From Aplectana chamaeleonis (taxonomy: Eukaryota; Nematoda; Chromadorea; Rhabditida; Cosmocercidae): a stretch of DNA of 64,000 bases. The stretch spans positions 62,001 through 126,000 of the forward strand of contig JAPDOI010001162.1 of assembly GCA_029168955.1 (NCBI GenBank). The letters are read 5' to 3'. A program made the position numbers and the translations under genes. Shown here piece by piece: positions 22,867-52,405 of this stretch (positions are counted from its first letter, which is position 1; every line of letters begins with the position of its first letter). The notes under the pieces are model-generated. The model made no database searches. It was not told the origin of the DNA and was given only the letters and a program-made list of their open reading frames with translations.

Positions 22867-22883
22867 CTCTGAAAATCTGTGGT

Positions 22884-29619: not shown

Positions 29620-29638
29620 ACCACAGATTTTCTCAGAG

Positions 29639-30545
29639 TCACTGCCGCAGTAGAGTTAAAAACGTACAGAAACGGGTCTAGAAAAGCACTATGAGGCCAT
29701 AATTTTTGCGTTTTCCGCGAAAAAACGCAATAAGCGTTTTTGGCGTCCTTTTGCCTTAACTCTGTTCATGATGATCAATTTGAGAATCCGAAGAAATATT
29801 TGGAATCAGGATCGAGAGTACTCTCTTTTAGCATATGCACTATTTGACATACTTTGTACAAAGCATTTAGGCGTAACACCATAAATGCATTGATTGCGAA
29901 ATCGCGATTCTGGTTGATTGTTTCTTGTCTAATTTTGCATACATATCTTGTTGAAGAAGGAGCCATGTGTTATTCCAGAAAAAAAGAGCACACGATGCTG
30001 ATTCCCAATATCTAGTTAGATTCCAAAATGGACCCTTTTGAAAAGAGTTATGGAAAAAAGAGCGAAAAAAAACTTTTTAGCGTTTTTTTGGGCCGAAAAC
30101 GCCAAAATAATGGCCAGTATTGCAGTAACAACGTTTCTCTGCAGTAAGGTATCTGCGAGCTCGAGGTATGAAACAATCTTCCTGAGGAAGGTTAAATCTC
30201 ATAGTTATTTAATAATAATCAGTATTAATTTCAATGTCATATTGTTTTGTTCTTTTATTTGTTAACTAAAAGAACGTAGGAACCCTAAGCTATCCATTAA
30301 TGCACTTGTCGTAGTCAAATATGAAGATAATTAGTGTTTTTGCCCACGAAGATAGGGCCGTTGCCGTAGTTATCATCATGCACATGTTGAACATCGATTG
30401 CAAACTCACGCGATGTATGGCGCGCCTCATAAGGGCAAGTCGTTATTATTTGGAATAAGTAGTTCATTGGTCTCTCTCGAGTCCACAACCGCCGCCGTGA
30501 CGAGGGCTAGGAGATTTTCAGTGTATTGGGCACGCAAACATAGAG
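29639..30545 (+). repeat. Repeat R1, copy 3 (in the right palindrome arm)
   Basis: Colinear with 20,143-21,034 and inverted relative to 21,987-22,866. It contains the block GCGAAAAAACGC near 29,715 that copy 1 lacks. Confidence 0.9.
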
Positions 30546-30667
30546 TAAAGCCTAGTTTTGACTACATCGCTGCTGTTTTTCATCGCAGCGATTTCACACC
30601 CGCCGCTGCAGCGATGTAGCAGCGGCAGCGAATCTGTTCATAGTGCATAGCCTGACGGATGATCGAA
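30546..30667 (-). mobile_element. Truncated TTA-flanked element
   Basis: It starts with AGCCTAGTTTTGACTACATC and runs through GCAGCGATG motifs, matching the reverse complement of 21,866-21,983. It is cut at 30,667, where the palindrome ends. Confidence 0.8.
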
Positions 30668-31088
30668 ACAGAGCGTGGGCTTCCAAGTGTTTCCGAAATT
30701 ACGAAGAAATTGCGGGAAACGCATTAAAACGTCATATTTCAGTGGCATTATTCTCTGGCCTGGACTAGTTGTCCGATTGGATGAACATGTTCATTGTGGT
30801 TGTGACCGGTGAAAAATGGGTTCAGTCGAAAATGGAAAAATATTTTATGTAAAACAGTATTAGTAGGGTCCGACGGAGGGGACGGAGCAACAGAAAGCAG
30901 AAAATGGCGAAGGACGGGCCCACAAAATATTTCGTCGTCACAACGAACAGTTCCTGCAAGAGTAAAGTGGCGGGGTGAGAGTAAAGGATTTCGTGCACTT
31001 TTGATCCGTTTTTCTCAGTTTCTCCGACATTTTAGTTCTACCCGGGGGTCAATAATCTCAAATTGAGGATTTCCATGAACACTGCCTT
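30668..31088. mobile_element. AAGGCAGTG-type MITE, 5' truncated
   Basis: Its right end is ACTGCCTT followed by TA (31,089-31,090). Compared with the intact copy at 50,632-51,098 it lacks about 43 terminal bases where the palindrome begins. Confidence 0.8.
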
Positions 31089-32382
31089 TAGAGGATTCAG
31101 CCACGGGTATCGGTTCTCGAGATCCACTTCCCCATTCCTCGCTTTTCTTTGTTCGAACGTTTCTGTCATCAACAAACCACATTTGCTTGGTAGATATCCT
31201 TTTTAGTAGAACTTCTTTGCTTTTTCTTTTTTATCACATGCGTAACCAGCAGCGCTAGCCAAGAATTAAGTAATTTTGTTGAGGAAACTGTGTAGTACTA
31301 TGAAAAACGAGCGTTAGAATTGTCACCGATCAATCGGCATTGAAATTTTAGATAGAACTCTATCAAGTTGTTCTACAGAAAGTGCATTCACAGGAGTAAT
31401 TGTGAATACAGCTTCAGCATCCACATAGACGAAGCGGTCGTGGTTGTTCGCCAGAATATACATGGAAACCCCAATCATCCAAAAGATGCTAGTCGATGGC
31501 ACAAGAGTAGCGTCTTTTTCTTTGTGTCTCCGGCGCAGGAGATGGGGTGGAGAGAGCAGCAAGCGTGAGGGAAAGTGGGCGAGGCATGCTTGGTTGTCAA
31601 TGGTACCGCAACCGATGTAGGCCAGCCGACGTGGACAAAGAGATAGGTTGAGAATGAAGAGAAGAACCGGGCTATTCCTCGGAAACAGTCACTAATCTCA
31701 CCGCTGTTTGGCTGGAGAGATCATAAAAGGGGCGTGCCAAAGTGGCCTCCGGATGTGGGCGCCTAATGGTGGCTTCCCTCCATATCTCGCTTATTCGGAG
31801 GAATTGAGAGTTCGCACTTGGCAGGTGCTATATGGGCAGGGTCTACTTCAAATTATGTGGAAACATCAGATTTCGTCCCTGAGCTAGGACTGTGCCTTTA
31901 ACAAATCGCACAACAATCAGAATTACCCCAAAATTCTCTTTGCTAATAGAAAAAAAGGTTTCTGCTCTTAGAAAAAGTTAACTCACAGCAAGTAAAAACT
32001 GTGTTTCACATATTGCAGAAGTAAGTCCTCGTGCTAACAACAAAGTTCTGCGTTGGCGCACGGTGCAAAATTTGTAAAAGGCTGGCTGACACAAAACATG
32101 GCGCGAAGCGGAACCGGCTCGTCCCCATTTATGACGTCACTGTCTAGACAGCAGCAGAGGGTCGCAACACGAACGAGATTCTCGTACGGTTGCTAGAGTA
32201 GCCTTGGCTCCCGTTCGGTCGCTCGAGGGCAACTGCGGTGCCATCACTAGCGATTGGTAAACGCTTCTCTGGCTAATCTTTGGGTGAAAATGCGCCGGTC
32301 ACCTGATCAACCGGTGTTTGAAGGCAGTGTTCACGATGGAGATTGTTTTTCTGTTTTTCAGCCTGTTTTGGAGACGGTCCCA
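30668..32382 (+). repeat. 1.7-kb inverted duplication, left copy
   Basis: This block is the reverse complement of 49,320-51,055 at high identity. It holds a truncated AAGGCAGTG element (30,668-31,088), a dispersed family-4 repeat (about 31,140-31,265), a short open frame ending SKISMPIDR on the minus strand (31,323-31,562) with no ATG at its open start, an AAGGCACAG-type end at 31,898, and the first 62 bases of another AAGGCAGTG element (32,321-32,382). The two copies flank the 13.5-kb hAT-like element almost symmetrically. Confidence 0.9.
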
Positions 32383-33204
32383 TGCATCCATATTACCCTT
32401 TCTGCAACCAGTTACATCCTGCACTTCTGATATTCACAGCATGCGGTGTATTCAATGGCTCATTTCATCCCTGGTCTTCCCCGTTTGCACTCCCGGTTGA
32501 CCAGCCGCGAAGGTGAGAGAGGGAGAGTGCGCGACAGCTAGACACTCGCAGCCGCCAATGACGTCATCGCGCGGTACGACTAGATGCATACGCAAATTGT
32601 AAAAAATGTTAGTAATATGCATACACACATAATATCAGAGTATTTTCCGTCATCTCGTGACTTGGGCATTGCAACAAAAATCTGCGGGCAGTGGTCATGC
32701 CTTCTGTAGAATAAAATCGAACTGACATAATCGATGCAAGAGTACAACTAAGAATTAATCAACCGAAATAGGCTGATAAGCTGATTTTCAAAAGATTTTG
32801 GCAGATTTGATTCAAAGCTTTCCATTGAAGATATTTTTTTTGGGGGGGGGGGGGGGCGAGAACGCGACATTTGAGGACGGAGTTCTCGGAAATACCATTC
32901 TAAAAACCCATCCTTCAGATTTATTGGGTGTGGCCACCTATAATCTAAGGTCCTCTTATCGAGTTTTAATAGATTACGGGTCTACTTGGGTATATGATAG
33001 TTCGGCTAGAGTCTCACAAGGGAAGAAAAATTTCTATATATCTTTCAGAGTAATTCTGGGCAGCTGCGAAGGGCATATTTACACTCTACGCTGAAAAATT
33101 GTTCTAGAAAAATACATTTGAATTGGTATGGCCACTTTGGCTAGTAGTGGTTTCCTTGTCAGATTTTACCAAAAACTTCTCCGGTTGGGGTTACTCCGGA
33201 CCTA
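32383..33204. other. Gene-free spacer with a T8G15 run
   Basis: No gene is supported. A run of eight T then fifteen G lies at 32,834-32,856. A TGACGTCA site is at 32,559-32,566, beside GCGCGG-rich DNA; another is at 32,132-32,139 in the neighbouring duplicated block. Confidence 0.6.
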
Positions 33205-34405: not shown

Positions 34406-34413
34406 TTGCCCAC
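34406..34413. repeat. 8-bp target duplication, left (TTGCCCAC)
   Basis: TTGCCCAC lies immediately before CAGGGGTGTGCG and is repeated exactly at 47,906-47,913 after the other end. The related uninterrupted sequences at 51.5 and 52.5 kb carry the same or a nearly identical word once. Confidence 0.88.
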
Positions 34414-34652
34414 CAGGGGTGTGCGTAAATGAAATTTCAAATTTCGTAAATCGTAAAACGTAATTACGACAAAACCACCGTAAATCGTAAACCGTAAACC
34501 GTAAATCGTAAACAACAACCAATAACAATAACCACTAACATATTATTACTGTGGTGAAACAAGAGAAACAACGTAGTGCCCACTGCTTCACGTCCTAGTA
34601 CATAATAGGTTGCGTTCAGTATTTGACAGCTAACCACGCTTAAGGGATACGG

Positions 34653-34935
34653 TACTGTGCTTCTCTGGGCCAAATTCCGGTCCGCAATTGCGTCTCGACA
34701 CGCTTTGCGGTCGCGCGCTTTCGAGTCGGAAGAGTTTCCAGCGCCCCAGCCGCCAATTTGTTGACTCTAGGTGGGTTTTGGAAACTGGAAACTAAACGAA
34801 ATTGGAGAAAACTGTATATAAAAGCCACATCGAGTCGGCTTTAGAGCTGGAAACTCGATTGACTGGAGCGCGTGCGGCCGCAAAGCGTGTCAAGACGCAA
34901 TTGCGGACCGGAATTTGGCCCAGAGAAGCACAGTA
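34653..34935. repeat. 90-bp-arm inverted repeat with a TATA-like motif in the loop
   Basis: Arms 34,653-34,742 and 34,846-34,935 are imperfect complements beginning TACTGTGCTTCTCTGGG. The roughly 100-base loop has TATATAAAAG at 34,815-34,824, a good Pol II TATA match. An open frame of 176 codons reads on the minus strand at 34,792-35,322, but it crosses the element junction at 35,154 and shows no known domain, so it is not called as a gene. Confidence 0.7.
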
Positions 34936-35589
34936 CACTTTGTCGCTGTAATAAGCGACAGGCGTGAAATCTAGCACAAATCGCGTGGGACCTGCACCGG
35001 AGCAGCGGCATCGGTTGCAGTAGGAACAAGTAGCCGCAGCGACGTATCGCGGAGGGCTGACATACTGCAAATGTGCCGAAGCCGGTCGCTGCCGCTGCGC
35101 AGAGCGACGCGACCGTGCTTCGTAAAAGTATGCCATACCCTTAAAGGCAGTGGTCGTGATTAAATATGCTTGTCGTCTTTTTCTCTCCGAATCCTTCTCT
35201 GGGTCTCGATTAGTAGGACCTACAAGAAAAAATCGCGAAAAAACCACTGTTTTGGGCCAAATTTGAAGCCTGAACTTTCTTGTCTTTTGATGGCGGACGA
35301 GCCCACTCCACATCATCGGCATCGATGACCTCTTATATCAAGAACATCAGCTGACTTAAAATTGAATTGTGGTTCTCTATGAGGAAGCGCTTTTGGCTCC
35401 ATAAAGGACTTTGATTATGTGAGTGCCGATAAAATATGTATATATGCATGTAAACCTAATAGCTATCATTAAAAAGGAGATGATGTTAAATTGTTTTAGG
35501 AACCAGTCAATTCTTCCTCGTAAAATACCACAACGGTTTGTTTCCGCTGTTTGGAAGTTTCGAAAAAGAAAAAGAGTTCTTGGAGGATA

Positions 35590-35755
35590 TTGTTCATTTT
35601 TGTAGACTCTCCTCTTTCCGCTTTCCTATTGTTCCCTTTTTGTTGAAGCATTTGTAACGCTAACCAAACCACTTTTGCTTGGGAGACCCCTTTTTTACAG
35701 AATTGTTCACTTTTTCTTGATATTACGCTGTAATATCCCATGCAAGAATTTCGAA
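35590..35755 (-). repeat. Dispersed family-4 repeat
   Basis: Recognisable around CCAAGCAAAAGTGGTTTGG on the minus strand, this segment is similar to 51,955-52,090 and, more distantly, 31,140-31,265 and its inverted copy near 50,455-50,585. It interrupts or ends the open frame that begins at about 35,912. Confidence 0.6.
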
Positions 35756-35759
35756 CAAA

Positions 35760-35912
35760 GATCTCTTCATCTCCCCACTGGATCAGTCCTCTTTCTGTGG
35801 TCACAAGAATCAATGAACCAAACTGTTGTAAAACTATCTCAGAAAAATCACTCGATGTGAAAAGCGCGCCCATGCCGATCACTTTTTCCGCAGGGCTACC
35901 GTAACCATTCTT
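35760..35912 (-). pseudogene. Exon-like fragment, unknown protein
   Basis: On the minus strand this encodes an ordinary-looking globular segment beginning NGYGSPAEKVIGMGALF and passing through LILVTTERGLIQWGD. A possible acceptor (TTGTTCAAG) precedes it and a possible donor (AGC then GTAATATC) follows. It does not join the upstream fragments in a consistent phase, and similarity to family-4 repeat DNA begins at its 3' end. No family is recognised. A partial antisense copy lies at 36,108-36,175. Confidence 0.3.
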
Positions 35913-36107
35913 GAACAAAACATGATAACGAATGTAAACACACGCTCATAACATGCGGGGTATAAAGAGCGGAGGAGCGGTATGCATTCATTCACACACC
36001 GCTCTCCTCGAGAAGCCACTGGGAGTGGCTGAGGAGGTCGAAATTGTGCAAACATGTTTGTTGGCTATTAGGATGTGCTCATAACCATGCTGACACTTGG
36101 AAAAATT

Positions 36108-36175
36108 TTAAGGAAGGTTACGGTAGCCCTGCGGAAAAATGATCGGCATGAGCGTGCTTGTCTCGATGTGGCTGA
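36108..36175 (+). repeat. Inverted copy of the exon-like fragment start
   Basis: About 65 bases starting GGTTACGGTAGCCCTGCGG repeat, on the plus strand, the first part of the 35,760-35,912 fragment. The space between the two contains short hairpins such as GCCACT-GGG-AGTGGC (about 36,015-36,029) and a TATA-like GGTATAAAGAGC near 35,960. Confidence 0.75.
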
Positions 36176-36295
36176 CAAGACCGATGTTCACATGATATTA
36201 GCTAAGAAATGAATGATATCCATGATATCGTTCCACATAATTCATTCATATTGATCGCGTCAGCCACATCTGGCTACACCGGGTGTTATTTGCAC

Positions 36296-36624
36296 CTTCC
36301 ATGTTTTTCATACGTATCGAACGGGTCGGCCACTGTGATTTTCTCAACCAACTCTGACAGGGACCTTAGGCCCCGGTTATAGTTGGTCGCCCAGACGTAG
36401 CCAGCCCGGTCGATAATCATGAAAGCCTGCTGGCCTACAGCCGGATGCAGAATCTGCCTGCAGTTCTTCGCTTTCAAATGAAACTAACTTAAAACCGGGA
36501 CAGTCAGAAACTACCTTCCATTCCATCTGGACACTTTCACATCAGTGGAACAAAGCAGTTTTACATACTCATTATTTCGTTTCCGTTGCCCCATTCGTTC
36601 GCAGAACAGCCGCTTCGATTCCAT
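36296..36624 (-). pseudogene. Two-exon gene fragment, unknown protein
   Basis: The proposed exon 1 runs 36,624-36,515 from an ATG (MESKRLFCERMGQRK). A 57-base intron, 36,514-36,458, has GT and CAG ends. Exon 2 is 36,457-36,296, joined in phase to give a run reading NGRQILHPAVGQQAFMIIDR and ending before GTGCAAAT. The frame is also open upstream of the ATG to about 36,795, with a hydrophobic stretch near 36,690-36,750. I recognise no domain. With no stop, promoter or consistent downstream exon, this looks like a captured or broken piece of a host gene within the larger element. Confidence 0.35.
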
Positions 36625-36799
36625 GAATCTGATATGAAAAAGCTCTGCTGAGCTGCGAATGGAGATAGTTCTAACAATTTGTTTTTGAATTTGGATGCTA
36701 ATAAGCAAGCATATACCATTTATTGCAGAAAAAATCAGTAGGCTGGTGAAGAAGGAAGAGGGAGCACTCAAAATGGGGTTGTGTGAATGACCTTACGAA

Positions 36800-37052
36800 A
36801 CTGAAAAGCAGCCTGGCAACATGACCTGACATGACCCACATAACATCTCAAACTTTCTGCTTGCTATGCTTGTCATCCTTACACTTTTACAGAAGTTTTG
36901 CAAGGTGTTCTCTCCTGCGCAAATTCCGGGGCATAATTTCTCGGATGGCTAGCATCGAGTCTGGGCTCCTGCTCACTCTACGGGGTGGTCTTCACAACTT
37001 TTCGGATGAGCAGCAACGGGTCCCGAACACCTGCCCACTATCCGGGTTTCCA
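36800..37052. other. Non-coding flank of the compound repeats
   Basis: There is no clear gene. The stretch leads directly into the first CGACGTCCCGATGACTTCATC unit at 37,052. Confidence 0.5.
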
Positions 37053-37808
37053 CGACGTCCCGATGACTTCATCAGAAGCCCGAAGCACTTTTGGGACTAT
37101 CCTAGACGGGGGGGGGTCACCCACGATTTTCCCATGAAAATGAATGGAAAACCTGATAAAAGATGTTTGATGCTGCTATCAGTCATTGTTGTTGATGAAG
37201 TTCTGTAGAAATAATTCGATTGATAGCGTTATAGATCGGTGGTTCATTCCATTTCTGACTTGAATCTTGAGTGCCCCCCCCCCCGTCTAGGATAGTCCCG
37301 CACTTCTCATGATGTCCCGATGACGTCATCAGAAGCCCGAAGCACTCTTGGGACTATCCTAGACGGGGGGGGGGCACCCACGACTTTCTCATGAAAATGA
37401 ATGGAAACCTTGATAAAAGGTGCTTGATGCTGCTATCAGTCATTGTTGTTGATGAAGTTGTGTAGAAATACTTTGATTGATAGCGTTATAGATCGGTGGT
37501 TCATTCCATTTCTGACTTGAATCTTGAGTGCCCCCCCGTCTGGAGTAGGCCCGCACTTCTCACGATGTCCCGATGACGTCATCAGAAGCCCGAAGCACTC
37601 TTGGGACTATCCTAGACGGGGGGGGGCACCCACGACTTTCTCATGAAAATCAATGGAAACCTTGATAAAAGGTGCTTGATGCTGCTATCAGTCATTGTTG
37701 TTCATGAAGTTGTGTAGAAATACTTTGATTGATAGCGTTATAGATCGGTGGTTCATTCCATTTCTGACTTGAATCTTGAGTGCCCCGTCTGGGGTAGGCC
37801 CGCACTTT
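37053..37808. repeat. Three compound units: one CRE-type repeat plus a G-tract mini-element each
   Basis: GTCCCGATGACGTCATC-type units recur at about 37,053, 37,312 and 37,563, 250-260 bases apart. Between them sits a segment of about 190 bases with inverted ends CTATCCTAGACGGGGGGG and complement; G/C runs reach nine to twelve bases. In the second and third units the right end is shortened (CCCCGTCTGG). This looks like a 42-bp-type repeat unit carrying an inserted mini-element, amplified as a compound unit at the edge of the array. Confidence 0.8.
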
Positions 37809-40800
37809 TCACGACGTCCCAATGACGTCATCAGAAACTCGAGGTACCTTTTACGACGTCCCGATGACGTCATCAGAAGCCCGAAGCACTTTTCACGACG
37901 TCCCGATGACGTCATCAGAAGCCCGAAGCACTTTCACGACGTCCCGATGACGTCATAAGAAGCCCGAAGCACTTTTCACGACGTCCCGATGACGTCATCA
38001 GAAGCCAGATGCACTTTTCATGACGTCCCGATGACGTCATCAGAAGCCAGATGCACTTTTCCTGACGTCCCGATGACGTCATCAGAAGCCAGATGCACTT
38101 TTCACGACGTCCCGATGACGTCATCAGAAGCCAGAAGAACTTTTCACGACGTCCCGATGACGTCATCAGAAGCCAGAAGCACTTTTCACGACGTCTCGAT
38201 GACGTCATCAGAAGCCAGATGCACTTTTCATGACGTCCCGATGACGTCATCAGAAGCCAGATGCACTTTTCCTGACGTCCCGATGACGTCATCAGAAGCC
38301 AGAAGCACTTTTCACGACGTCCCGATGACGTCATCAGAAGCCAGATGCACTTTTCATGACGTCCCGATGACGTCATCAGAAGCCAGATGCACTTTTCCTG
38401 ACGTCCCGATGACGTCATCAGAAGCCAGATGCACTTTTCACGACGTCCCGATGACGTCATCAGAAGCCAGAAGAACTTTTCACGACGTCCCGATGACGTC
38501 ATCAGAAGCCAGAAGCACTTTTCACGACGTCCCGATGACGTCATCAGAAGCCAGATGCACTTTTCATGACGTCCCGATGACGTCATCAGAAGCCAGATGC
38601 ACTTTTCCTGACGTCCCGATGACGTCATCAGAAGCCAGATGCACTTTTCATGACGTCCCGATGACGTCATCAGAAGCCAGATGCACTTTTCATGACGTCC
38701 CGATGACGTCATCAGAAGCCAGATGCACTTTTCATGACGTCCCGATGACGTCATCAGAAGCCAGATGCACTTTCATGACGTCCCGATGACGTCATCAGAA
38801 GCCAGATGCACTTTTCATGACGTCCCGATGACGTCATCAGAAGCCAGATGCACTTTCCTGACGTCCCGATGACGTCATCAGAAGCCAGATGCACTTTTCA
38901 CGACGTCCCGATGACGTCATCAGAAGCCAGAAGAACTTTTCACGACGTCCCGATGACGTCATCAGAAGCCAGAAGCACTTTTCACGACGTCCCGATGACG
39001 TCATCAGAAGCCAGATGCACTTTTCATGACGTCCCGATGACGTCATCAGAAGCCAGATGCACTTTTCCTGACGTCCCGATGACGTCATCAGAAGCCAGAT
39101 GCACTTTTCATGACGTCCCGATGACGTCATCAGAAGCCAGATGCACTTTTCATGACGTCCCGATGACGTCATCAGAAGCCAGATGCACTTCTCATGACGT
39201 CCCGATGACGTCATCAGAAGCCAGATGCACTTTTCATGACGTCCCGATGACGTCATCAGAAGCCAGATGCACTTTCACTGACGTCCCAATGACGTCATCA
39301 GAAACTCGAGGTACCTTTTACGACGTCCCGATGACGTCATCAGAAGCCCGAAGCACTTTTCACGACGTCCCGATGACGTCATCAGAAGCCAGAAGAACTT
39401 TTCACGACGTCCCGATGACGTCATCAGAAGCCAGAAGCACTTTTCACGACGTCCCAATGACGTCATCAGAAGCCAGATGCACTTTTCATGACGTCCCGAT
39501 GACGTCATCAGAAGCCAGATGCACTTTTCCTGACGTCCCGATGACGTCATCAGAAGCCAGATGCACTTTTCATGACGTCCCGATGACGTCATCAGAAGCC
39601 AGAAGCACTTTTCACGACGTCCCGATGACGTCATCAGAAGCCAGAAGCACTTTTCACGACGTCTCGATGACGTCATTAGAAGCCAGATGCACTTTTCATG
39701 ACGTCCCGATGACGTCATCAGAAGCCAGATGCACTTTCCTGACGTCCCGATGACGTCATCAGAAGCCCGAAGCACTTTTCACGACGTCCCGATGACGTCA
39801 TCAGAAGCCAGATGCACGTTTCATGACGTCCCGATGACGTCATCAGAAGCCAGATGCACTTTTCCTGACGTCCCGATGACGTCATCAGAAGCCAGATGCA
39901 CTTTTCACGACGTCCCGATGACGTCATCAGAAGCCAGAAGAACTTTTCACGACGTCCCGATGACGTCATCAGAAGCCAGAAGCACTTTTCACGACGTCCC
40001 GATGACGTCATCAGAAGCCAGATGCACTTTTCATGACGTCCCGATGACGTCATCAGAAGCCAGATGCACTTTTCCTGACGTCCCGATGACGTCATCAGAA
40101 GCCAGATGCACTTTTCATGACGTCCCGATGACGTCATCAGCCAGATGCACTTTCATGACGTCCCGATGACGTCATCAGAAGCCAGATGCACTTTTCATGA
40201 CGTCCCGATGACGTCATCAGAAGCCAGATGCACTTTCGCGACGTCCCGATGACGTCATCAGAAGCCAGATGCACTTTTCATGACGTCCCGATGACGTCAT
40301 CAGAAGCCAGATGCACTTTCCTGACGTCCCGATGACGTCATCAGAAGCCAGATGCACTTTTCACGACGTCCCGATGACGTCATCAGAAGCCAGAAGAACT
40401 TTTCACGACGTCCCGATGACGTCATCAGAAGCCAGAAGCACTTTTCACGACGTCCCGATGACGTCATCAGAAGCCAGATGCACTTTTCATGACGTCCCGA
40501 TGACGTCATCAGAAGCCAGATGCACTTTTCCTGACGTCCCGATGACGTCATCAGAAGCCAGATGCACTTTTCATGACGTCCCGATGACGTCATCAGAAGC
40601 CAGATGCACTTTTCATGACGTCCCGATGACGTCATCAGAAGCCAGATGCACTTCTCCTGACGTCCCGATGACGTCATCAGAAGCCAGATGCACTTTTCAC
40701 GACGTCCCGATGACGTCATCAGAAGCCAGAAGAACTTTTCACGACGTCCCGATGACGTCATCAGAAGCCAGAAGCACTTTTCACGACGTCCCGATGACGT

Positions 40801-43800
40801 CATCAGAAGCCAGATGCACTTTTCCTGACGTCCCGATGACGTCATCAGAAGCCAGATGCACTTTTCACGACGTCCCGATGACGTCATCAGAAGCCAGAAG
40901 AACTTTTCACGACGTCCCGATGACGTCATCAGAAGCCAGATGCACTTTTCATGACGTCCCGATGACGTCATCAGAAGCCAGATGCACTTTTCATGACGTC
41001 CCGATGACGTCATCAGAAGCCAGATGCACTTTTCATGACGTCCCGATGACGTCATCAGAAGCCAGATGCACTTTTCCTGACGTCCCGATGACGTCATCAG
41101 AAGCCAGATGCACTTTTCACGACGTCCCGATGACGTCATCAGAAGCCAGAAGAACTTTTCACGACGTCCCGATGACGTCATCAGAAGCCAGAAGCACTTT
41201 TCACGACGTCCCGATGACGTCATCAGAAGCCAGATGCACTTTTCATGACGTCCCGATGACGTCATCAGAAGCCAGATGCACTTTCCTGACGTCCCGATGA
41301 CGTCATCAGAAGCCAGATGCACTTTTCATGACGTCCCGATGACGTCATCAGAAGCCAGATGCACTTTTCCTGACGTCCCGATGACGTCATCAGAAGCCAG
41401 ATGCACTTTCATGACGTCCCGATGACGTCATCAGAAGCCAGATGCACTTTTCACGACGTCCCGATGACGTCATCAGAAGCCAGATGCACTTTTCACGACG
41501 TCCCGATGACGTCATCAGAAGCCAGATGCACTTTTCATGACGTCCCGATGACGTCATCAGAAGCCAGATGCACTTTTCCTGACGTCCCGATGACGTCATC
41601 AGAAGCCAGATGCACTTTTCATGACGTCCCGATGACGTCATCAGAAGCCAGATGCACTTTTCATGACGTCCCGATGACGTCATCAGAAGCCAGATGCACT
41701 TTTCATGACGTCCCGATGACGTCATCAGAAGCCAGATGCACTTTTCATGACGTCCCGATGACGTCATCAGAAGCCAGATGCACTTTCATGACGTCCCGAT
41801 GACGTCATCAGAAGCCAGATGCACTTTTCATGACGTCCCGATGACGTCATCAGAAGCCAGATGCACTTTTCATGACGTCCCGATGACGTCATCAGAAGCC
41901 AGATGCACTTTTCATGACGTCCCGATGACGTCATCAGAAGCCAGATGCACTTTTCATGACGTCCCGATGACGTCATCAGAAGCCAGATGCACTTTTCATG
42001 ACGTCCCGATGACGTCATCAGAAGCCAGATGCACTTTTCCTGACGTCCCGATGACGTCATCAGAAGCCAGATGCACTTTTCATGACGTCCCGATGACGTC
42101 ATCAGAAGCCAGATGTACTTTTCATGACGTCCCGATGACGTCATCAGAAGCCAGATGCACTTTCATGACGTCCCGATGACGTCATCAGAAGCCAGATGCA
42201 CTTTTCATGACGTCCCGATGACGTCATCAGAAGCCAGATGCACTTTTCATGACGTCCCGATGACGTCATCAGAAGCCAGATGCACTTTCCTGACGTCCCG
42301 ATGACGTCATCAGAAGCCAGATGCACTTTTCCTGACGTCCCGATGACGTCATCAGAAGCCAGATGCACTTTCATGACGTCCCGATGACGTCATCAGAAGC
42401 CAGATGCACTTTTCATGACGTCCCGATGACGTCATCAGAAGCCAGATGCACTTTTCCTGACGTCCCGATGACGTCATCAGAAGCCAGATGCACTTTTCAT
42501 GACGTCCCGATGACGTCATCAGAAGCCAGATGCACTTTTCATGACGTCCCGATGACGTCATCAGAAGCCAGATGCACTTTTCATGACGTCCCGATGACGT
42601 CATCAGAAGCCAGATGCACTTTTCCTGACGTCCCGATGACGTCATCAGAAGCCAGATGCACTTTTCATGACGTCCCGATGACGTCATCAGAAGCCAGATG
42701 CAGCTTTCATGACGTCCCGATGACGTCATCAGAAGCCAGATGCACTTTTCCTGACGTCCCGATGACGTCATCAGAAGCCAGATGCACTTTTCATGACGTC
42801 CCGATGACGTCATCAGAAGCCAGATGCACTTTTCATGACGTCCCGATGACGTCATCAGAAGCCAGATGCACTTTTCACGACGTCCCGATGACGTCATCAG
42901 AAGCCAGATGCACTTTTCATGACGTCCCGATGACGTCATCAGAAGCCAGATGCACTTTTCATGACGTCCCGATGACGTCATCAGAAGCCAGATGCACTTT
43001 TCATGACGTCCCGATGACGTCATCAGAAGCCAGATGCACTTTCATGACGTCCCGATGACGTCATCAGAAGCCAGATGCACTTTTCATGACGTCCCGATGA
43101 CGTCATCAGAAGCCAGATGCACTTTTCATGACGTCCCGATGACGTCATCAGAAGCCAGATGCACTTTTCATGACGTCCCGATGACGTCATCAGAAGCCAG
43201 ATGCACTTTTCATGACGTCCCGATGACGTCATCAGAAGCCAGATGCACTTTTCATGACGTCCCGATGACGTCATCAGAAGCCAGATGCACTTTTCATGAC
43301 GTCCCGATGACGTCATCAGAAGCCAGATGCACTTTCATGACGTCCCGATGACGTCATCGTGGCCAGATGAATTTTCAGCGACGTCCCTGATGACGTCACT
43401 CAGAAGCCAGATGCGCACTTTTCATGACGTCCCGATGACGTCATCAGAAGCCAGATGCACTTTTCATGACGTCCCGATGACGTCATCAGAAGCCAGATGC
43501 ACTTTTCATGACGTCCCGATGACGTCATCAGAAGCCAGATGCACTTTTCATGACGTCCCGATGACGTCATCAGAAGCCAGATGCACTTTTCATGACGTCC
43601 CGATGACGTCATCAGAAGCCAGATGCACTTTTCATGACGTCCCGATGACGTCATCAGAAGCCAGATGCACTTTCATGACGTCCCGATGACGTCATCAGAA
43701 GCCAGATGCACTTTTCATGACGTCCCGATGACGTCATCAGAAGCCAGATGCACTTTTCATGACGTCCCGATGACGTCATCAGAAGCCAGATGCACTTTTC

Positions 43801-45953
43801 ATGACGTCCCGATGACGTCATCAGAAGCCAGATGCACTTTTCATGACGTCCCGATGACGTCATCAGAAGCCAGATGCACTTTTCACGACGTCCCGATGAC
43901 GTCATCAGAAGCCAGATGCACTTTTCATGACGTCCCGATGACGTCATCAGAAGCCAGATGCACTTTTCATGACGTCCCGATGACGTCATCAGAAGCCAGA
44001 TGCACTTTTCATGACGTCCCGATGACGTCATCAGAAGCCAGATGCACTTTTCATGACGTCCCGATGACGTCATCAGAAGCCAGATGCACTTTTCATGACG
44101 TCCCGATGACGTCATCAGAAGCCAGATGCACTTTTCACGACGTCCCGATGACGTCATCAGAAGCCAGATGCACTTTTCATGACGTCCCGATGACGTCATC
44201 AGAAGCCAGATGCACTTTTCCTGACGTCCCGATGACGTCATCAGAAGCCAGATGCACTTTCATGACGTCCCGATGACGTCATCAGAAGCCAGATGCACTT
44301 TTCATGACGTCCCGATGACGTCATCAGAAGCCAGATGCACTTTTCGCGACGTCCCGATGACGTCATCAGAAGCCAGATAGATGCACTTTTCATGACGTCC
44401 CGATCACGCCATCAGAAGCCAGATGCACTTTTCATGACGTCCCGATGACGTCATCAGAAGCCAGATGCACTTTTCATGACGTCCCGATGACGTCATCAGA
44501 AGCCAGATGCACTTTTCATGACGTCCCGATGACGTCATCAGAAGCCAGATGCACTTTTGATGACGTCCCGATGACGTCATCAGAAGCCAGATGCACTTTT
44601 CATGCCGTCCCGATGGCGTCATCAGAAGCCAGATGCACCGTTCATCACGACCAGATGACGTCATCAGAAGACAGATGCACTTTTCATGACGTCCCGATGA
44701 CGTCATCAGAAGCCAGATGCACTTTCATGACGTCCCGATGACGTCATCAGAAGCCAGATGCACTTTCATGTCGTCCCGATGACGTCATCAGAAGCCAGAT
44801 GCACTTTTCATGACGTCCCGATGACGTCATCAGAAGCCAGATGCACTTTTCATGACGTCCCGATGACGTCATCAGAAGCCAGATGCACTTTTCATGACGT
44901 CCCGATGACGTCATCAGAAGCCAGATGCACTTTTCATGACGTCCCGATGACGTCATCAGAAGCCAGATGCACTTTTCATGACGTCCAGATGACGTCATCA
45001 GAAGCCAGATGCACTTTTCATGACGTCCCGATGACGTCATCAGAAGCCAGATGCACTTTTCATGACGTCCCGATGACGTCATCAGAAGCCAGATGCACTT
45101 TTCATGACGTCCCGATGACGTCATCAGAAGCCAGATGCACTTTTCATGACGTCCCGATGACGTCATCAGAAGCCAGAAGAACTTTTCACGACGTCCCGAT
45201 GACGTCATCAGAAGCCAGAAGCACTTTTCACGACGTCCCGATGACGTCATCAGAAGCCAGATGCACTTTTCCTGACGTCCCGATGACGTCATCAGAAGCC
45301 AGATGCACTTTTCATGACGTCCCGATGACGTCATCAGAAGCCAGATGCACTTTTCATGACGTCCCGATGACGTCATCAGAAGCCAGATGCACTTTTCATG
45401 ACGTCCCGATGACGTCATCAGAAGCCAGATAGATGCACTTTTCATGACGTCCCGATGACGTCATCAGAAGCCAGATGCACTTTTCATGACGTCCCGATGA
45501 CGTCATCAGAAGCCAGATGCACTTTTCATGACGTCCCGATGACGTCATCAGAAGCCAGATGCACTTTTCATGACGTCCCGATGACGTCATCAGAAGCCAG
45601 ATGCACTTTTCATGACGTCCCGATGACGTCATCAGAAGCCAGATAGATGCACTTTTCTGGCGACGTCCCGATGACGTCATCAGAAGCCAGATGCACTTTC
45701 ATGACGTCCCGATGACGTCATCAGAAGACAGATGCACTTTTCATGACGTCCCGATGACGTCATCAGAAGCCAGATGCACTTTTCATGACGTCCCGATGAC
45801 GTCATCAGAAGCCAGATGCACTTTTGATGACGTCCCGATGACGTCATCAGAATCCAGATGCACTTTTCATGACGTCCCGATGACGTCATCAGAAGCCAGA
45901 TGCACTTTTCATGACGTCCCGATGACGTCATCAGAAGCCAGATGCACTTTCAC
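37809..45953. repeat. 42-bp minisatellite with a CREB/ATF palindrome in nearly every unit, about 194 units
   Basis: The unit is ATGACGTCCCGATGACGTCA followed by TCAGAAGCCAGATGCACTTTTC. It contains the perfect palindrome ATGACGTCAT, and so the consensus CRE TGACGTCA, plus a second TGACGTC eleven bases upstream. Variants at the CATG/CCTG/CACG and GATGCAC/GAAGAAC/GAAGCAC positions form a five-unit, 210-base higher-order repeat in the left half. The right half is mostly one variant. Units of 41 bp (one T missing) recur, some 377 bases apart. Because 42 is divisible by three, both strands stay open over long runs, but 41-bp units break every frame repeatedly, so no protein is called. Confidence 0.95.
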
Positions 45954-46036
45954 CAGCCTGCGTCCCCCCAACTTACCTGCCTGAAATTGACCGCCTGTGA
46001 CCATTGGCAGTGAATACTAGCAGTGAAGAATGAAAA

Positions 46037-46090
46037 GCGTGACGGCCTACGGCCTACGGCCTACGGCCTACGGCCCACGGCCTACGGCGC
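46037..46090. repeat. GGCCTAC microsatellite
   Basis: About six 7-base units, mostly CGGCCTA, with one CGGCCCA variant. It is not the nematode telomere repeat TTAGGC, although one strand contains GTAGGC. Confidence 0.9.
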
Positions 46091-46290
46091 ACACCATCAA
46101 TTTTTCCTAAGCTTTCGGCCTCACAACTTTGTTATTTGTGAACCGATTCGGCTCAAATTTTGAGAGCTGGTGTCTTTTGGACCCCTTCACTTATATCCAG
46201 AAGGGAATCTGCCGAAAATTTGTTTAAATGGTTTTATAAACTACTTTATAAAATTAGAAGTGATCACAAGGTCTAGGCAAAACCAAACCT
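46091..46290. other. Non-coding DNA between array and right element end
   Basis: No gene seen; a few short open frames only. Confidence 0.5.
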
Positions 46291-46313
46291 CTCCAGCCGC
46301 TTCGCGGCTGGAG
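46291..46313. repeat. 10-bp-stem hairpin with a TTC loop
   Basis: CTCCAGCCGC-TTC-GCGGCTGGAG is a perfect hairpin. Its other strand contains GCGAAGC, the same core found twice in each 131-bp satellite unit. Confidence 0.9.
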
Positions 46314-47796
46314 CGATTTCAATCAATGAAGCTTCGGATTTATGCACACATATAGTCAAAAGCATTGACTGAAATGCTTGCTTTCATTGTTCAACTGTTT
46401 TTATTAGGGAAATTTGTTTTTATTTCTTCCTCTGAGTGTCGATGATTTTTGACTGCTCCGCATGAGACTGCGATCTTTTTCGTCATCGCTGTGCACGTGT
46501 GCACGAACTAGCATCTTTTGGCCCTAGAAACTCTAATTCTAGCCCGTTTTTCACCGCTCTACCTTCATAGTTTTTCAGCTGTTTTTGATCTAAGCTGATT
46601 TTTGTAGTTTTTTCTATAACGTTTTTCATCGTGACCACTGCCTTTAACGGGACCGTCTTACCCGTATTTCTCTGCTTTCCCTAACCACTGATTCCACAAC
46701 TCCTTCCCAGATCTTGAGAGTCCGATTCAGCTGTCCGCATATCTGCTGGGCAACAGGGACACAATTATTCTCGTAATGCCTCTCCCGGAACGCTAACGCC
46801 GTTGTAAGCTTTGAGCCAAAATCACCGTATTTGAGCGAATCTCAACAGTCGAATTTGAGAACTCTTCCCATTTGCTAGCGGAACCGCAACACTGATTATA
46901 CAATCGGTAGGGATCGCACTCATATGCTGTATATTATGTACTCCGAGCTCCCTACTGAAGGTTGGCTCAAACTCGGTGCACGTACGTTAAAAAGCATGAC
47001 ATCTAGCTTGCGCCAACCTTCAATAGAGATCGCAAAGTATCAGTACGATCCGTGCCAACTCTATAATATCTAGAGCACAGTATCGGTCGCCAAGCGCAGG
47101 CTATTTTTTCAGATATCCAATAAATCACTTGTAGAATCGTAGCTTTCTGGTGACGATACTGCAGATTCTCAAAGGAAGCGTAGGCACAAAAATCTGCTTT
47201 CTAATTTTCGCCGCTGTGTAGTTTAATCACCATAGTTAAAGAATGTAGCCAACGCGCCCCACCGAGAAATTATCTAGAGGGAACGACTTTTAGCTTCAAA
47301 TTTTTAGGATAAAAAACGATTCTTTTAGGATTCTCGTAATGATTTTTGTGGACTCTGAGTAGCCGTGATCTACTCAAAAGGCGGGCCAGGAGCACTATTT
47401 GAAGCAATTATTTGATTGATTAGACTGCTTCGCTCGATGTTTTGCCGGCAATCGAGTTATTGGAATCAGGAAAATTGATTTTTATGAAAAACTCGAAAAC
47501 GAAGTTCCTGGTGAAGAGTGGGTTTAGATTGCATCGCGTCGTAGGCGACAGCTAGTCAGACGTGTGCGGCGGGCAACGCGGATCTGCTCTCCAGCGCCTT
47601 CAACTCCGACCGTGTGTCCCGCATTATAATGATAGAATCACGTCAAAGAATGATAATGGGATCGTGCTGTGTAATCACACGCCTGGGTTGGTCCCATCTC
47701 CTGACCAAAAGGATTATTATACCCAAAGTGGGATTGGAGCAGGTCAATTGGAGATGTGATTTACTTCCATCGCTTGTGTTTTTATTTACGAAAAAT
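46314..47796. other. Right body of the nested elements, no gene seen
   Basis: 46,314-46,644 belongs to the TA-flanked element and 46,647-47,796 to the hAT-like element. A small inverted repeat (GAAGGTTGGC with GCCAACCTTC) spans about 46,962-47,027. An open stretch at 47,560-47,825 has no known domain. No transposase motifs are visible on either strand. Confidence 0.6.
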
Positions 47797-47895
47797 TACG
47801 ATTTACGGTCCAAAATGTCGTAAATCGTAAATCGTAATTACGAGACGAAAAAACACCGTAAATCGTAAAATCGTAAATCGTAAACCGTAATTACG
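47797..47895. repeat. Right subterminal CGTAAAT array of the hAT-like element
   Basis: Repeated CGTAAAT, CGTAAAC and CGTAATTACG words; the same words occupy 34,418-34,516 near the left end. A likely role, by family analogy, is transposase binding. Confidence 0.75.
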
Positions 47896-47905
47896 CACAC
47901 CCCTG

Positions 47906-47913
47906 TTGCCCAC
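47906..47913. repeat. 8-bp target duplication, right (TTGCCCAC)
   Basis: Exact match to 34,406-34,413, directly after CACCCCTG. Confidence 0.88.
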
Positions 47914-48894: not shown

Positions 48895-49382
48895 AAGGCA
48901 GTGTTCACGATGAGAAATGTGTTTCTGTTTTCACTAGGAATGGGTAGTAGAGGGGCACACTGTAACGTTGACGTCGAAAGAGCCCATGAAAACGAGCCAG
49001 GAAGAGCCTCAAAAGAGCCCGAAGTGTCCACTTTGAGCGCAAGGCTAACCCCAGAAGCGCAATGCCCGCCCTCCGACGTGAACAAAAGAAAATTCGAGAT
49101 CGTGAAATGAGCGATGGTTTCCGATCAATAGCCCCGTTCTGCCCTTCACTCTCAACTTCTCTCTTTACTCAGATCAGCTCGCATGCGTCGGCTGCAAAAG
49201 ACGGAAGTTACAAGCCTCGGACGACTCGTCAACCATGCTTCCCTAGCTCAATTTCTAAGGGGCCATAACTCCGTTACCAGAAGGTCCTGTACGATTTCAG
49301 AGACATCATTGAAATCAGCATGGGACCGTCTCCAAAACAGGCTGAAAAACAGAAAAACAATCTCCATCGTGAACACTGCCTT
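48895..49382. mobile_element. AAGGCAGTG-type MITE, 488 bp
   Basis: The left end is AAGGCAGTGTTCACGATGA; the right end is its near complement. Both flanks are CA instead of TA, probably drifted TA. The interior shares the block with GGAAGTTACAAGCCTCGGAC found in the 51.2 and 52.4 kb elements. Its right 62 bases are duplicated at 32,321-32,382. Confidence 0.75.
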
Positions 49383-51055
49383 CAAACACCGGTTGATCAG
49401 GTGACCGGCGCATTTTCACCCAAAGATTAGCCAGAGAAGCGTTTACCAATCGCTAGTGATGGCACCGCAGTTGCCCCGAGAGCGACCGAACGGGAGCCAA
49501 GGCTGCTCTAGCAACCGTACGAGAATCTCGTTCGTGTTGCGACCCTCTGCTGCTGTCTAGACAGTGACGTCATAAATGGGGAGGAGCCGGTTCTGCTTCG
49601 AGCCATGTTTTGTGTCAGCCAGCCTTTTACAAATTTTGCACCGTGCGCGAACGCAGAACTTTGTTGTTAGCACGAGGACTTACTTCTGCAATATGTGAAA
49701 CACAGTTTTTACTTCCTGTCAGTTAACTTTTTCTAAGAGCAGAAACCTTTCTTTCTATTAGCAAAGAGAATTTTGGGGTAATTCTGATTGTTGTGCAATT
49801 TGTTAAAGGCACAGTCCTAGCTCAGGGACGGAATCTGATGTTTCCACATAATTTGAAGTAGACCCTGCCCATATAGCACCTGCCAAGTGCGAACTCTCAA
49901 TTCCTCCGAATAAGCGAGATATGGAGGGAAGCCACCCTTAGGCAAACCCCGCCTTAGGCGCCCACATCCGGATGCCACTTTGGCACGCCCCTTTTATGAT
50001 CAATCCAGCCAAGCAGCGGCGAGATTAGTGACTGTTTCCGAGAAATGGCGCCGTTCTTCTCTTCATTCTCAACCTATCTCTTTGTCCACGTCGGCTGGCC
50101 TACATCGGTTGCGGTACCATTGACAACCAAGCATGCCTCGCCCACTTTCCCTCGCGCTTGCTGCGCTCTCCACCCCAGCTCTTGCGCCGGAGACACAAAG
50201 AAAAAGACGCTACTACTGTGCCATCAACTGGCATCTCTAGGATGGTTGGGGTTTCTATGTATATTCTGGCAAACAGCCACGACCGCTTCGTCTATGTGGA
50301 TGCTGAAGCTGTAATCACAATTACGCCTGTGAATGCACTTTCTGTAGAACAACTTGATAGAGTTCTATCTAAAATTTCAATGCCGATTGATCGGTGACAA
50401 TTCTAACGCTCGTTTTTCATAGTACTACACAGTTTCCTCAACAAAATTACTTAATTCTTGGCTAGCGCTGCTGGTTACGCATGTGATAAAAAAGAAAAAG
50501 CAAAGAAGTTCTACTAAAAAGGATATCTACCAAGCAAATGTGGTTTGTTGATGACAGAAACGTTCCAACAAAGAAAAGCGAGGAATGGGGAAGTGGATCT
50601 CGAGAACCGATACCCGTGGCTGAATCCTCTAAAGGCAGTGTTCATGGAAATCCTCAATTTGAGATTATTGACCCCCGGGTAGAACTAAAATGACGGAGAA
50701 ACTGAGAAAAACGGATCAAAAGTGCACGAAATCCTTTACTCTCACCCCGCCACTTTACTCTTGCAGGAACTGTTCGTTGTGACGACGAAATATTTTGTGG
50801 GCCCGTCCTTCGCCATTTTCTGCTTTCTGTTGCTCCGTCCCCTCCGTCGGACCCTACTAATACTGTTTTACATAAAATATTTTTCCATTTTCGACTGAAC
50901 CCATTTTTCACCGGTCACAACCACAATGAACATGTTCATCCAATCGGACAACTAGTCCAGGCCAGAGAATAATGCCACTGAAATACGACGTTTTAATGCG
51001 TTTCCCGCAATTTCTTCGTAATTTCGGAAACACTTGGAAGCCCACGCTCTGTTTT
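49320..51055 (-). repeat. 1.7-kb inverted duplication, right copy
   Basis: Reverse complement of 30,668-32,382. It includes an AAGGCACAG-type end at 49,806, the minus-to-plus counterpart of the short open frame (50,158-50,397, ending SKISMPIDR) and most of the intact MITE at 50,632. The two copies differ by point changes and a few indels; for example, there is an extra segment near 49,940-49,960 here. Confidence 0.9.
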
Positions 51056-51171: not shown

Positions 51172-51659
51172 AAGGCACTGTTCGCGATAAAAATCGCTTT
51201 TCTGTTTTTTTGCCTATCTTGAACCCGGTCCCATTCTGATTCCAATGATGCTTCTGGAATCGTACAAGACCTTCTGGGAATGGAGTTAAGGTCCCTCAAA
51301 AATTGAGCTAGGGAAGCATGGTGGACGAGTTGTCCGAGGCTTGTAACTTCCGTCTTTTACAGCCGATGTATGCGAGCTGACCTGAGTAAAGAGAGAAGTT
51401 GAGAATGAAGGAAAGAACGGGGCTTTTGATCGGAAACCATCGCTTAACTCATGATTTCGAGTGTTTCTTTGTTCACGTCGAGGGGCGGGAAGAGGCGGGA
51501 CTTGCCCACAATGGCGGGGTTTTCCCACTTTTCTAAGCCGTTTTGTGGCTCCTGGGTAGCTTTTTGTACCGTTTTTTTGACGCTGTTCTGCTTCTGGGAG
51601 CCACGAGAAGCGTTTGTCATGAAAAATTCGAGGATGAAGTTTATCGCGAACAGTGCCTT
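51172..51659. mobile_element. Complete AAGGCACTG-type MITE, 488 bp, TA-flanked
   Basis: The ends AAGGCACTGTTCGCGATAAA and complement are flanked by TA at 51,170-51,171 and 51,660-51,661. Its interior at 51,490-51,540 shows the uninterrupted version of the hAT target region. Confidence 0.85.
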
Positions 51660-52405
51660 TAATTCGGTTATATTCTAGTACCAAGGAAAAATCGTGCACT
51701 CAATGCTTATTATTAGAAAGAAAACACAATGTTTGTAATTTCATAGAAACGATTTCATTTTGACGTTCAGAAAAGTAAACCAGTGAAAGTGCAGTAGCAT
51801 GTGCAATTACTAGCACATGAACCTTTTCAGCCGAATAAAAGCCCTTCTTCGAAAAGCCTAGGACACTTTCATGTGAAAAACCCCAGCGGTTTGTTTGGGG
51901 AGAATTAAACAATTTTGTCCACGGAAATCGGTTCTCAAGAAAAAAATTTAATTTTTTCGTAGACTCGCCCACTCCACTTTCCTGATATTCCTTTTTGTTG
52001 GAGCGTTTCTGCCAGCGCCAAACCGCTCTTGCTTGGAGAAATCCATTTACCTAGAATTGTTAACTCTTTCTTAGTATCACGTAGTAATACCCACGAGAAA
52101 TCATCACGATTAGCCAATCTGTATCGTTTGATTTGATAAACAGTAAACGACCAACTTGCTAATCAATTTCCCTATCCCACCCATCAAAAAAGCATCGCTT
52201 ACAACGTGGTTTCGCGATTTGGTCTAATAATCTAATATTCATTTGATAATTAGTAAGTAACCAACTTGTTAATTGGTTCTCTTAAACCACCGCCTTGAAA
52301 AAACTCACGCTACAAAGTCTTTCAGTCCTCTGATTTAGGAGTCAATTACTTCAGAGATCCTGTCTTGGGGCAAACTTTGCTCAGGAGCTCGCTCAAGATA
52401 TATTA
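51660..52405. other. Spacer with a family-4 repeat copy
   Basis: About 51,955-52,090 resembles 35,590-35,755. Minus-strand open frames here (51,700-52,117) echo that repeat and are not supported as a gene. Confidence 0.6.

What the first reader, a model, noticed from the sequence alone, without database searches (positions are those of the whole stretch)
34406..47913. A 13.5-kb hAT-like element with a perfect 8-bp target duplication carries the whole CRE minisatellite
Seen: TTGCCCAC immediately outside both ends, 15-bp inverted ends CAGGGGTGTGCGTAA, and CGTAAAT arrays just inside both ends. Known: hAT elements start CA(G), make 8-bp duplications and often have repeated subterminal binding motifs. 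Related MITEs at about 51,490-51,540 and 52,530-52,570 show the same local sequence uninterrupted, which serves as an internal empty site. A giant non-autonomous transposon that carries an 8-kb array of transcription-factor sites would be a vehicle for moving regulatory DNA.
Basis: partly seen in the sequence, partly recalled or inferred. Interest (0 to 1): 0.9.

Follow-up and report, generated by a model that had tools for sequence, protein, structure and literature searches.

The report
Helitron-like element carrying CRE-motif minisatellite array
In a large nematode genome, an 8-kb array of about 190 cAMP-response-type DNA sites is not cargo of a giant hAT transposon but of a rolling-circle-type (Helitron-like) element that landed inside two older nested transposons and that occurs, often with such arrays, at many other places in the genome.

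Summary
In detail: TTGCCCAC flanks 34406-47913, the 15-bp inverted ends are exact, and they belong to a large hAT-like family (1,529 exact 15-mers genome-wide; 8/8 or 7/8 flank identity in 27 of 29 end pairs examined). One giant transposon it is not. Uninterrupted relatives show a hAT-like element with about 1.7 kb of own sequence, interrupted by a TA-flanked MITE (34655-34933) and by a 549-bp TTAA-flanked element (35145-46643). The latter is itself split exactly between A and T by an 11-kb element (35367-46316) that carries the whole CRE array. I read this innermost element as a non-autonomous Helitron-like element: constant 3' end with a perfect hairpin, A|T insertion without duplication, variable 5' end. 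Its exact 39-bp 3' end occurs 2,154 times; 13 of 20 sampled ends carry dense CRE arrays, of two unit types that share GATGACGTCATC. From a common reference point to the 3' end, 13 copies span 3.6-10.1 kb; unit order at the array's left edge is partly shared. The organism is a nematode (exact SL1 22-mer). Closest precedent: Caenorhabditis Helitrons spreading heat-shock elements. CTRR is absent, no partner with matching ends was found, and CRE activity is untested.

The parts
34406..34413 (.). Left 8-bp target duplication TTGCCCAC of the outer hAT-like element
34414..47905 (+). Outer hAT-like element; about 1.7 kb of own sequence (34414-34654, 34936-35144, 46648-47905), interrupted by later insertions
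34414..34428 (+). Left terminal inverted repeat CAGGGGTGTGCGTAA
47891..47905 (-). Right terminal inverted repeat CAGGGGTGTGCGTAA
47906..47913 (.). Right 8-bp target duplication TTGCCCAC
34655..34933 (.). Nested MITE, 279 bp, inverted ends identical over the 36 bp compared (CTGTGCTTCTC...), TA on both sides (34653-34654, 34934-34935); absent from the nine aligned relatives
35145..46643 (+). Nested TTAA element, 549 bp of own sequence (35145-35366 and 46317-46643), inverted ends AGGCAGTGGTC; TTAA duplication at 35141-35144 and 46644-46647
35367..46316 (+). Helitron-like element (5'-truncated copy, 10,950 bp) inserted between A35366 and T46317 of the TTAA element; carries the CRE array
35860..36161 (.). 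MITE inside the Helitron-like element, about 300 bp, flanked by CTCGATGTG on both sides; absent in copy L054, present in L052 and L053
37051..37836 (+). About three 249-257-bp composite units, each holding one 42-bp-type unit
37802..45950 (+). 42-bp minisatellite, about 194 copies; the Helitron-like element holds 194 exact TGACGTCA (37321-45923); GATGACGTCATC occurs 188 times in the window
46042..46088 (+). Short ACGGCCT microsatellite between array and 3' end
46291..46316 (+). 3' end of the Helitron-like element: hairpin with perfect 10-bp stem (46291-46313) then CGA; host T follows

Best explanation
The interval is a nest of transposons. A non-autonomous hAT-like element with about 1.7 kb of own sequence inserted into an older repeat and made the TTGCCCAC duplication. 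A 549-bp TTAA-type element (and, separately, a TA-type MITE) then inserted into it. Later a non-autonomous Helitron-like element inserted into the TTAA element at A|T without duplication. The CRE minisatellite belongs to that last element: it was already an array in the ancestor of several copies, travels as cargo, and is expanded or contracted in each copy by unequal exchange or by slippage during copying. Shown: the layers, their ends, target sites, empty sites, dispersal, partly shared left-edge unit order and length variation. Inferred: rolling-circle movement by a helper Helitron protein, and the mechanism of array length change. Not shown: binding of CREB/ATF-type proteins or any effect on genes.
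For: Insert-free hAT-like copies. Joined TTAA-element query: 40 of 40 scored places match from TTAA to TTAA, 92-95%; of four empty sites read, three are ATTGAATTTCAATC and one ATTCAATTTCAATT, where the window has ATTGAA | element | TTTCAATC. 5' part of the Helitron-like element: 39 other scored places, 90-98%. 3' flank: 39 of 39 other scored copies stop at 46316-46327, 28 of 39 within one base of 46317, 95-99% identical; 10 of 10 fetched 3' ends read GGAGCGA then T. 11 of 11 full 5' ends read are preceded by A; an insertion in an ATAAC tandem repeat (C1303) keeps register. 2,154 exact 3' 39-mers, reversed control 0. Hairpin z -6.4. Left-edge unit order J-G-H in window, L075 and L076, J-G in L053. 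Two copies of one insertion on C996 differ in length, 4.6 and 8.7 kb. Helitron proteins: 42 PF14214 matches; frames of 1709 and 2107 aa with Helitron_like_N and PIF1 domains.
Against: The 3' end is GCGA, not the CTRR of canonical Helitrons; the hairpin stops 3 nt from the end; the 5' end is TTCTG in 10 of 11 read, TCTG in 1. The three autonomous Helitron stretches fetched share no end sequence with the element, though they may not reach those elements' ends. L052 and L054 share less of the left-edge unit order. Only 40 candidates per DNA search were scored (of 3,001, 5,669 and 7,337).
Confidence: 0.85

Rival explanations
1. A single giant 13.5-kb non-autonomous hAT transposon that acquired the array and moves it by cut and paste.
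For: Perfect TSD and ends. Other long hAT-ended copies have perfect TSDs: 8.6 kb (L033) and 14.0 kb (L031/L032).
Against: Insert-free copies; the TTAA element and the Helitron-like element each have their own ends, empty sites and dispersed copies; none of 40 scored TTAA-element copies continues into hAT sequence.
Confidence: 0.04
2. The array-bearing element is not a Helitron relative but another, undescribed class that inserts at A|T without duplication and has a fixed 3' hairpin end and variable 5' ends.
For: Missing CTRR, hairpin next to the end, no matching autonomous partner found.
Against: Target site, lack of duplication, 3' hairpin and 5'-side variation are the Helitron pattern (recalled); Helitron proteins are present.
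Confidence: 0.15
3. The repeats are iteron-like sites for the transposition or replication protein rather than transcription-factor sites.
For: A palindrome repeated in tandem ahead of the 3' hairpin and present in two unit types.
Against: 4 of 20 sampled copies with the same 3' end have no TGACGTCA in about 860 bp upstream, three of these with other tandem repeats there, so the sites are not needed at that place.
Confidence: 0.1

Closest known systems
Caenorhabditis Helitrons carrying heat-shock elements (Helitron1_CE, HelitronY1_CE, HelitronY4_CE; PMC6927752, search listing and passages seen)
   Same: Nematode Helitrons, mostly non-autonomous, with clusters of one transcription-factor motif; eight HelitronY4_CE copies hold more than 100 HSEs
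   Different: Here the motif is CRE-type TGACGTCA in a 42-bp minisatellite; binding by HSF-1 was measured there, nothing is measured here; sequence relation of the elements not tested
Cg_HINE non-autonomous Helentrons of Crassostrea gigas (PMC7492417; abstract, section 7 and part 1 of the discussion read)
   Same: Central tandem arrays between conserved flanks, a microsatellite, a 3' palindrome, no TSD
   Different: There 140-180-bp units on average, longest array 29 monomers, oligo-T insertion, 11-12-bp subterminal inverted repeats, microsatellite before the array; here 42-bp units, about 194 in the window, A|T insertion, microsatellite after the array
hAT transposons, Ac-type by target consensus (recalled)
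   Same: 8-bp duplication nTnnnnAn, CAGGGG ends, repeated subterminal CGTAAA motifs
   Different: No transposase seen in the element and none assigned to the family
Kolobok / T2-type TTAA elements (recalled)
   Same: TTAA duplication, inverted ends beginning AGG
   Different: Assignment by ends only; no transposase sought

Membership tests
hAT superfamily (outer element) | 8-bp target-site duplication | tested here: met
   16 of 29 pairs 8/8 and 11 of 29 7/8, two pairs not matching
hAT superfamily (outer element) | Short terminal inverted repeats starting CA(G) | tested here: met
   CAGGGGTGTGCGTAA, 1,529 exact copies, reversed control 0
hAT superfamily (outer element) | hAT transposase encoded by a family member with these ends | tested here: inconclusive
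   150 scored PF05699 matches (of 851 candidates); none of those on C1-C13 lies within 15 kb of a listed end; other contigs not checked
Helitron (inner element) | Insertion between A and T without target duplication | tested here: met
   Window junction against 4 empty sites; 11 of 11 left A, 10 of 10 right T, two of these one duplicated insertion
Helitron (inner element) | 3' hairpin | tested here: met
   10-bp stem, z -6.4 in the window; same sequence or one-letter variant in 10 of 10 fetched ends
Helitron (inner element) | 3' CTRR terminus | tested here: not met
   GCGA in 10 of 10 fetched ends
Helitron (inner element) | 5' TC terminus | tested here: inconclusive
   TTCTG in 10 of 11 and TCTG in 1 of 11 full 5' ends
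Helitron (inner element) | RepHel helper with matching ends | tested here: inconclusive
   RepHel proteins present; 3 stretches of 9.9 kb show no matching ends but may not reach the ends
Helentron/HINE | Insertion at T|T or oligo-T | tested here: not met
   A|T target
Helentron/HINE | Short subterminal inverted repeats shared by both ends | not tested
   No systematic search made; a 190-bp inverted pair lies at the 5' end only
Kolobok (middle element) | TTAA duplication and AGG ends | tested here: met
   Ends; 40 of 40 scored copies end within 10 bases of the TTAAs
Kolobok (middle element) | Kolobok transposase | not tested
   No search made

The most novel reading that the evidence does not exclude
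A nematode rolling-circle transposon family has amplified CRE/bZIP palindromes into arrays of up to about 190 sites and seeded them at many of its roughly two thousand insertion places, with the 12-bp palindrome kept by selection in diverged unit types. It would be a second, independent case (after heat-shock elements in Caenorhabditis) of Helitrons dispersing dense arrays of one transcription-factor site, perhaps serving helper expression or acting as a factor sink.
Probability: 0.2. Interest if true: 0.75.

Novelty: new variant of a known kind. Interest (0 to 1): 0.5.

Why it matters
It corrects a giant-transposon reading: perfect outer duplications can enclose unrelated later insertions, and insert-free copies must be checked before calling cargo. 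The array-bearing element offers a natural test of whether long arrays hinder transposition, as a published model predicts (as cited in PMC7492417): here copies spanning 3.6-10.1 kb from a common reference point to the 3' end are dispersed at high identity. It also gives a nematode system, parallel to heat-shock-element Helitrons, in which to ask whether dispersed arrays of bZIP sites affect nearby genes.

Tried and rejected
Rejected: giant hAT carrying the array (see rivals). Rejected: later deletion as the cause of the window copy's short 5' end; the target A|T is intact on both sides, so the truncation was probably there at insertion (inference). Helentron assignment considered and lowered because of the A|T target.

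Led nowhere: search for matching ends at three autonomous Helitron stretches; transposase near hAT ends on C1-C13; Rfam scan of the window, 0 matches; tRNAs, 0 with a bacterial-code scan. Literature: hAT transposon with minisatellite and nematode, 2 papers, both off the point by title; Kolobok with TTAA and minisatellite, 0 papers; tandem repeat, MITE, central, satellite DNA, TGACGTCA, at least 4 of 5, 78 papers, 15 listed, none of these 15 holding TGACGTCA; Helitron with tandem repeats, nematode and cAMP response element, 0 papers; Helitron with CREB, 13 papers, 12 listed, none on this by title and abstract start; Helitron with TGACGTCA, 2 papers, of which I read passages of one. So I found no report of CRE arrays in Helitrons in those searches; most subscription papers are not in the library.

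Not obtained: genome-wide count of the 42-bp units, and best-copy identity of the hAT-like element (tool busy each time). The order hAT oldest, TTAA element, Helitron-like youngest rests on nesting; identities (67-93% in matched stretches of 100 bp or more of hAT copies; 92-95% for the 40 scored TTAA copies; 95-99% for 39 scored 3' flanks) agree, but the hAT copies were taken by position and the others are best-scoring, so they are not strictly comparable. L076's per-position count is spoiled by non-array sequence in the slice and is not used.

Full report
What was claimed and what is there. The duplication TTGCCCAC (34406-34413, 47906-47913), the exact 15-bp inverted ends and the CGTAAA clusters are there. 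The window is contig C279:62001-126000 of a 1.037-Gb assembly. The exact SL1 leader GGTTTAATTACCCAAGTTTGAG in two SL1-like genes (50 and 48 bits, below Rfam's cut-off of 75) marks it as a nematode.

The outer family. CAGGGGTGTGCGTAA occurs 765 + 764 times in the assembly, its reversed control 0 times. Of 30 facing pairs visible in the listing (first 100 places) I examined 28; with the window, 16 of 29 have 8/8 identical flanks, 11 have 7/8, one 6/8 (L036) and one 2/8 (L037). Two pairs (L003/4, L005/6) share the same duplication and are probably one duplicated insertion. Position 2 is T in 24 of 29 and position 7 is A in 23 of 29 left flanks, the nTnnnnAn pattern that I recall for Ac-type hAT elements. 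Left and right ends differ beyond the first 15-16 bp.

Insert-free copies. Nine hAT-like copies of 1.73-2.15 kb align, with smaller gaps of their own, to window 34414-34654, about 34935-35144 and 46645-47905 and have no 11.5-kb insertion. Where the window has CCATACCC-TTAA-AGGCAGTGG ... CCACTGCCT-TTAA-CGGGACC, copy L043 reads CCATACCCTTAATGGGATC. A second insertion in the window (34655-34933) has inverted ends identical over the 36 bp compared and TA on both sides.

The middle layer. A query of 100 bp of hAT sequence, the two TTAA-flanked pieces joined (35145-35366 and 46318-46643), and about 113 bp of hAT sequence gave 40 scored matches of 7,337 first-look candidates. All 40 cover only the part from TTAA to TTAA (start 91-101, end 656-666), at 92-95% identity, without interruption at the join. 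The query lacked T46317; with it the element is 549 bp. None of the 40 continues into hAT sequence.

The inner layer carries the array. Window 36180-37836 has 39 other scored copies, some partial, 90-98% identical (40 of 3,001 candidates scored, the window included). The 3' flank has 39 other scored copies (40 of 5,669), 95-99% identical, all stopping at 46316-46327, 28 of 39 within one base of 46317; only the window continues. Ten fetched 3' ends read CTCCAGCCGCTT[C/T]GCGGCTGGAGCGA followed by T and then unrelated DNA, except that the two on C996 have the same flank (1 mismatch in 221) and are taken as one insertion in a duplicated stretch. The hairpin folds at -12.9 kcal/mol, z -6.4. Of the full 5' ends read, 10 of 11 begin TTCTGT and 1 of 11 TCTGT, and 11 of 11 follow an A; the two C996 copies and the window start further in. 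In four empty copies of the TTAA element the site reads ATTGAATTTCAATC (three) or ATTCAATTTCAATT (one); the window has ATTGAA, the element, then TTTCAATC. The element therefore sits exactly between A and T with nothing lost or duplicated, although its 5' end is truncated. An insertion in an ATAAC tandem repeat (C1303) also keeps the repeat's register. These are Helitron features (recalled), except that CTRR is missing and the hairpin is unusually close to the end. Helitron proteins are present: 42 PF14214 matches, and frames of 1709 and 2107 aa with Helitron_like_N and PIF1 domains. The three stretches of 9.9 kb that I fetched around such proteins show no matching ends, but may not reach those elements' ends, so the helper is unknown.

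The array. The Helitron-like element in the window holds 194 exact TGACGTCA; about 0.15 per 10 kb are expected from base composition. L075 and L076 hold 161 and 91 exact sites, 162 and 92 with listed one-letter variants. From the position equivalent to 36180 to the 3' end, 13 copies paired measure: window 10.1 kb, C996 4.6 and 8.7, C584 5.2, C73 4.2, C3 3.6, C6 3.6, C350 4.0, C94 4.9, C850 8.3, C1303 4.3, C1402 6.4, C1606 5.3; pairing is by strand and nearness, an inference. The two C996 values belong to what looks like one duplicated insertion, so array length changed after insertion there, unless the assembly is wrong. Coding units by exact sequence, the left edge reads J-G-H-K-A-B in the window and L076, J-G-H in L075 and J-G in L053; L052 and L054 share less of it; a B-C-E-D-A-B order recurs within arrays; L076 contains a large internal duplication. 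I infer that an array was inherited and then changed in each copy.

How widespread. The exact 39-bp 3' end occurs 1,089 + 1,065 times, reversed control 0. I looked at about 860 bp upstream in 20 of the first 21 listed places (the one left out, C3:2320531, was already in hand through). 13 of 20 have a dense array (7-14 TGACGTCA): 8 with window-type units (L096 a variant) and 5 with a second 42-bp unit type, TGATGACGTCATCAGATGCCCTATGTACTTTACATGACACCC; 3 of 20 have one or two sites; 4 of 20 have none, three of these with other tandem repeats. The pattern itself contains the final T, so these 20 say nothing about the target base. How many of the 2,154 carry arrays, and how long, was not measured.

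Is the CRE core conserved? The octamer differs from consensus at 0.19% per base against 2.7% for the rest in the window (most conserved of 42 circular 8-bp windows), 0.16 against 2.2% in L075 (rank 8), 1.9 against 7.9% in eight sampled copies (rank 4) and 0.2 against 2.9% in five copies of the second type (rank 1). Much of the excess outside comes from a few positions that distinguish unit variants. Counting distinct variant types, the 12-bp palindrome has fewer per position than the rest in each set, with p 0.04, 0.32, 0.02 and 0.47 in the four usable sets; 8 fixed differences between the two unit types all fall outside it (p 0.05; the two consensus units were read by eye). This is suggestive only, and no factor binding was tested. 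The name CRE rests on the recalled consensus.

Known relatives. In passages of PMC6927752 five Caenorhabditis elegans Helitron classes hold more than 10,000 heat-shock elements, with over 100 in each of eight HelitronY4_CE copies, and HSF-1 binds Helitron sites. PMC7492417 (abstract, section 7, discussion part 1) describes non-autonomous Helentrons with central satellite-like arrays. The review PMC12628747 (passages) states that Helitron/Helentron elements often hold central arrays. The present element is thus a new variant: nematode, CRE-type 42-bp unit, more units per array than the oyster elements. Interest is moderate.

Noticed in passing
window 1-18207: 131-bp satellite array, about 139 copies by three tandem-repeat rows, with a GC-rich hairpin GCGCCGCGAAGCGGCGC in the unit
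   Followed up: no
window 22668-29845: Very large imperfect palindrome: inverted arms 90-99% alike around about 26.2 kb
   Followed up: no
window 30666-32385 and 49318-51054: Inverted pair 97-100% alike on either side of the nest
   Followed up: no
window 55253-62744: 60-bp repeat in higher-order units of about 335 and 455 bp
   Followed up: no
L031/L032 (C6:1032904-1046944) and L033 (C2:6383985-6392607): Other long hAT-ended copies (14.0 and 8.6 kb) with perfect 8-bp duplications; L033 contains a diverged relative of the CRE-bearing element with 3 TGACGTCA, at a different position of the hAT-like element
   Followed up: partly
G000 contigs C1125-C1293: Many hAT-domain matches with equal scores, many in long open frames (up to 1141 aa), several per contig; could be another compartment or a contaminant
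   Followed up: no
L088, L102, L104: Elements with the same 3' end but with a different, longer tandem repeat instead of CRE units near that end
   Followed up: partly
outside the genome: PMC13370393 (preprint, passages read): FISH probe for a Caenorhabditis auriculariae satellite (Ca_SR8) contains TGACGTCATCAG, as the 42-bp unit does; satellites and Helitrons are enriched there in DNA eliminated during development. May be coincidence
   Followed up: no
window 35513-35703 and its inverted partner in L052 (514-704): 190-bp inverted pair at the 5' end of the Helitron-like element; a diverged stretch of it at window 51954-52092
   Followed up: partly
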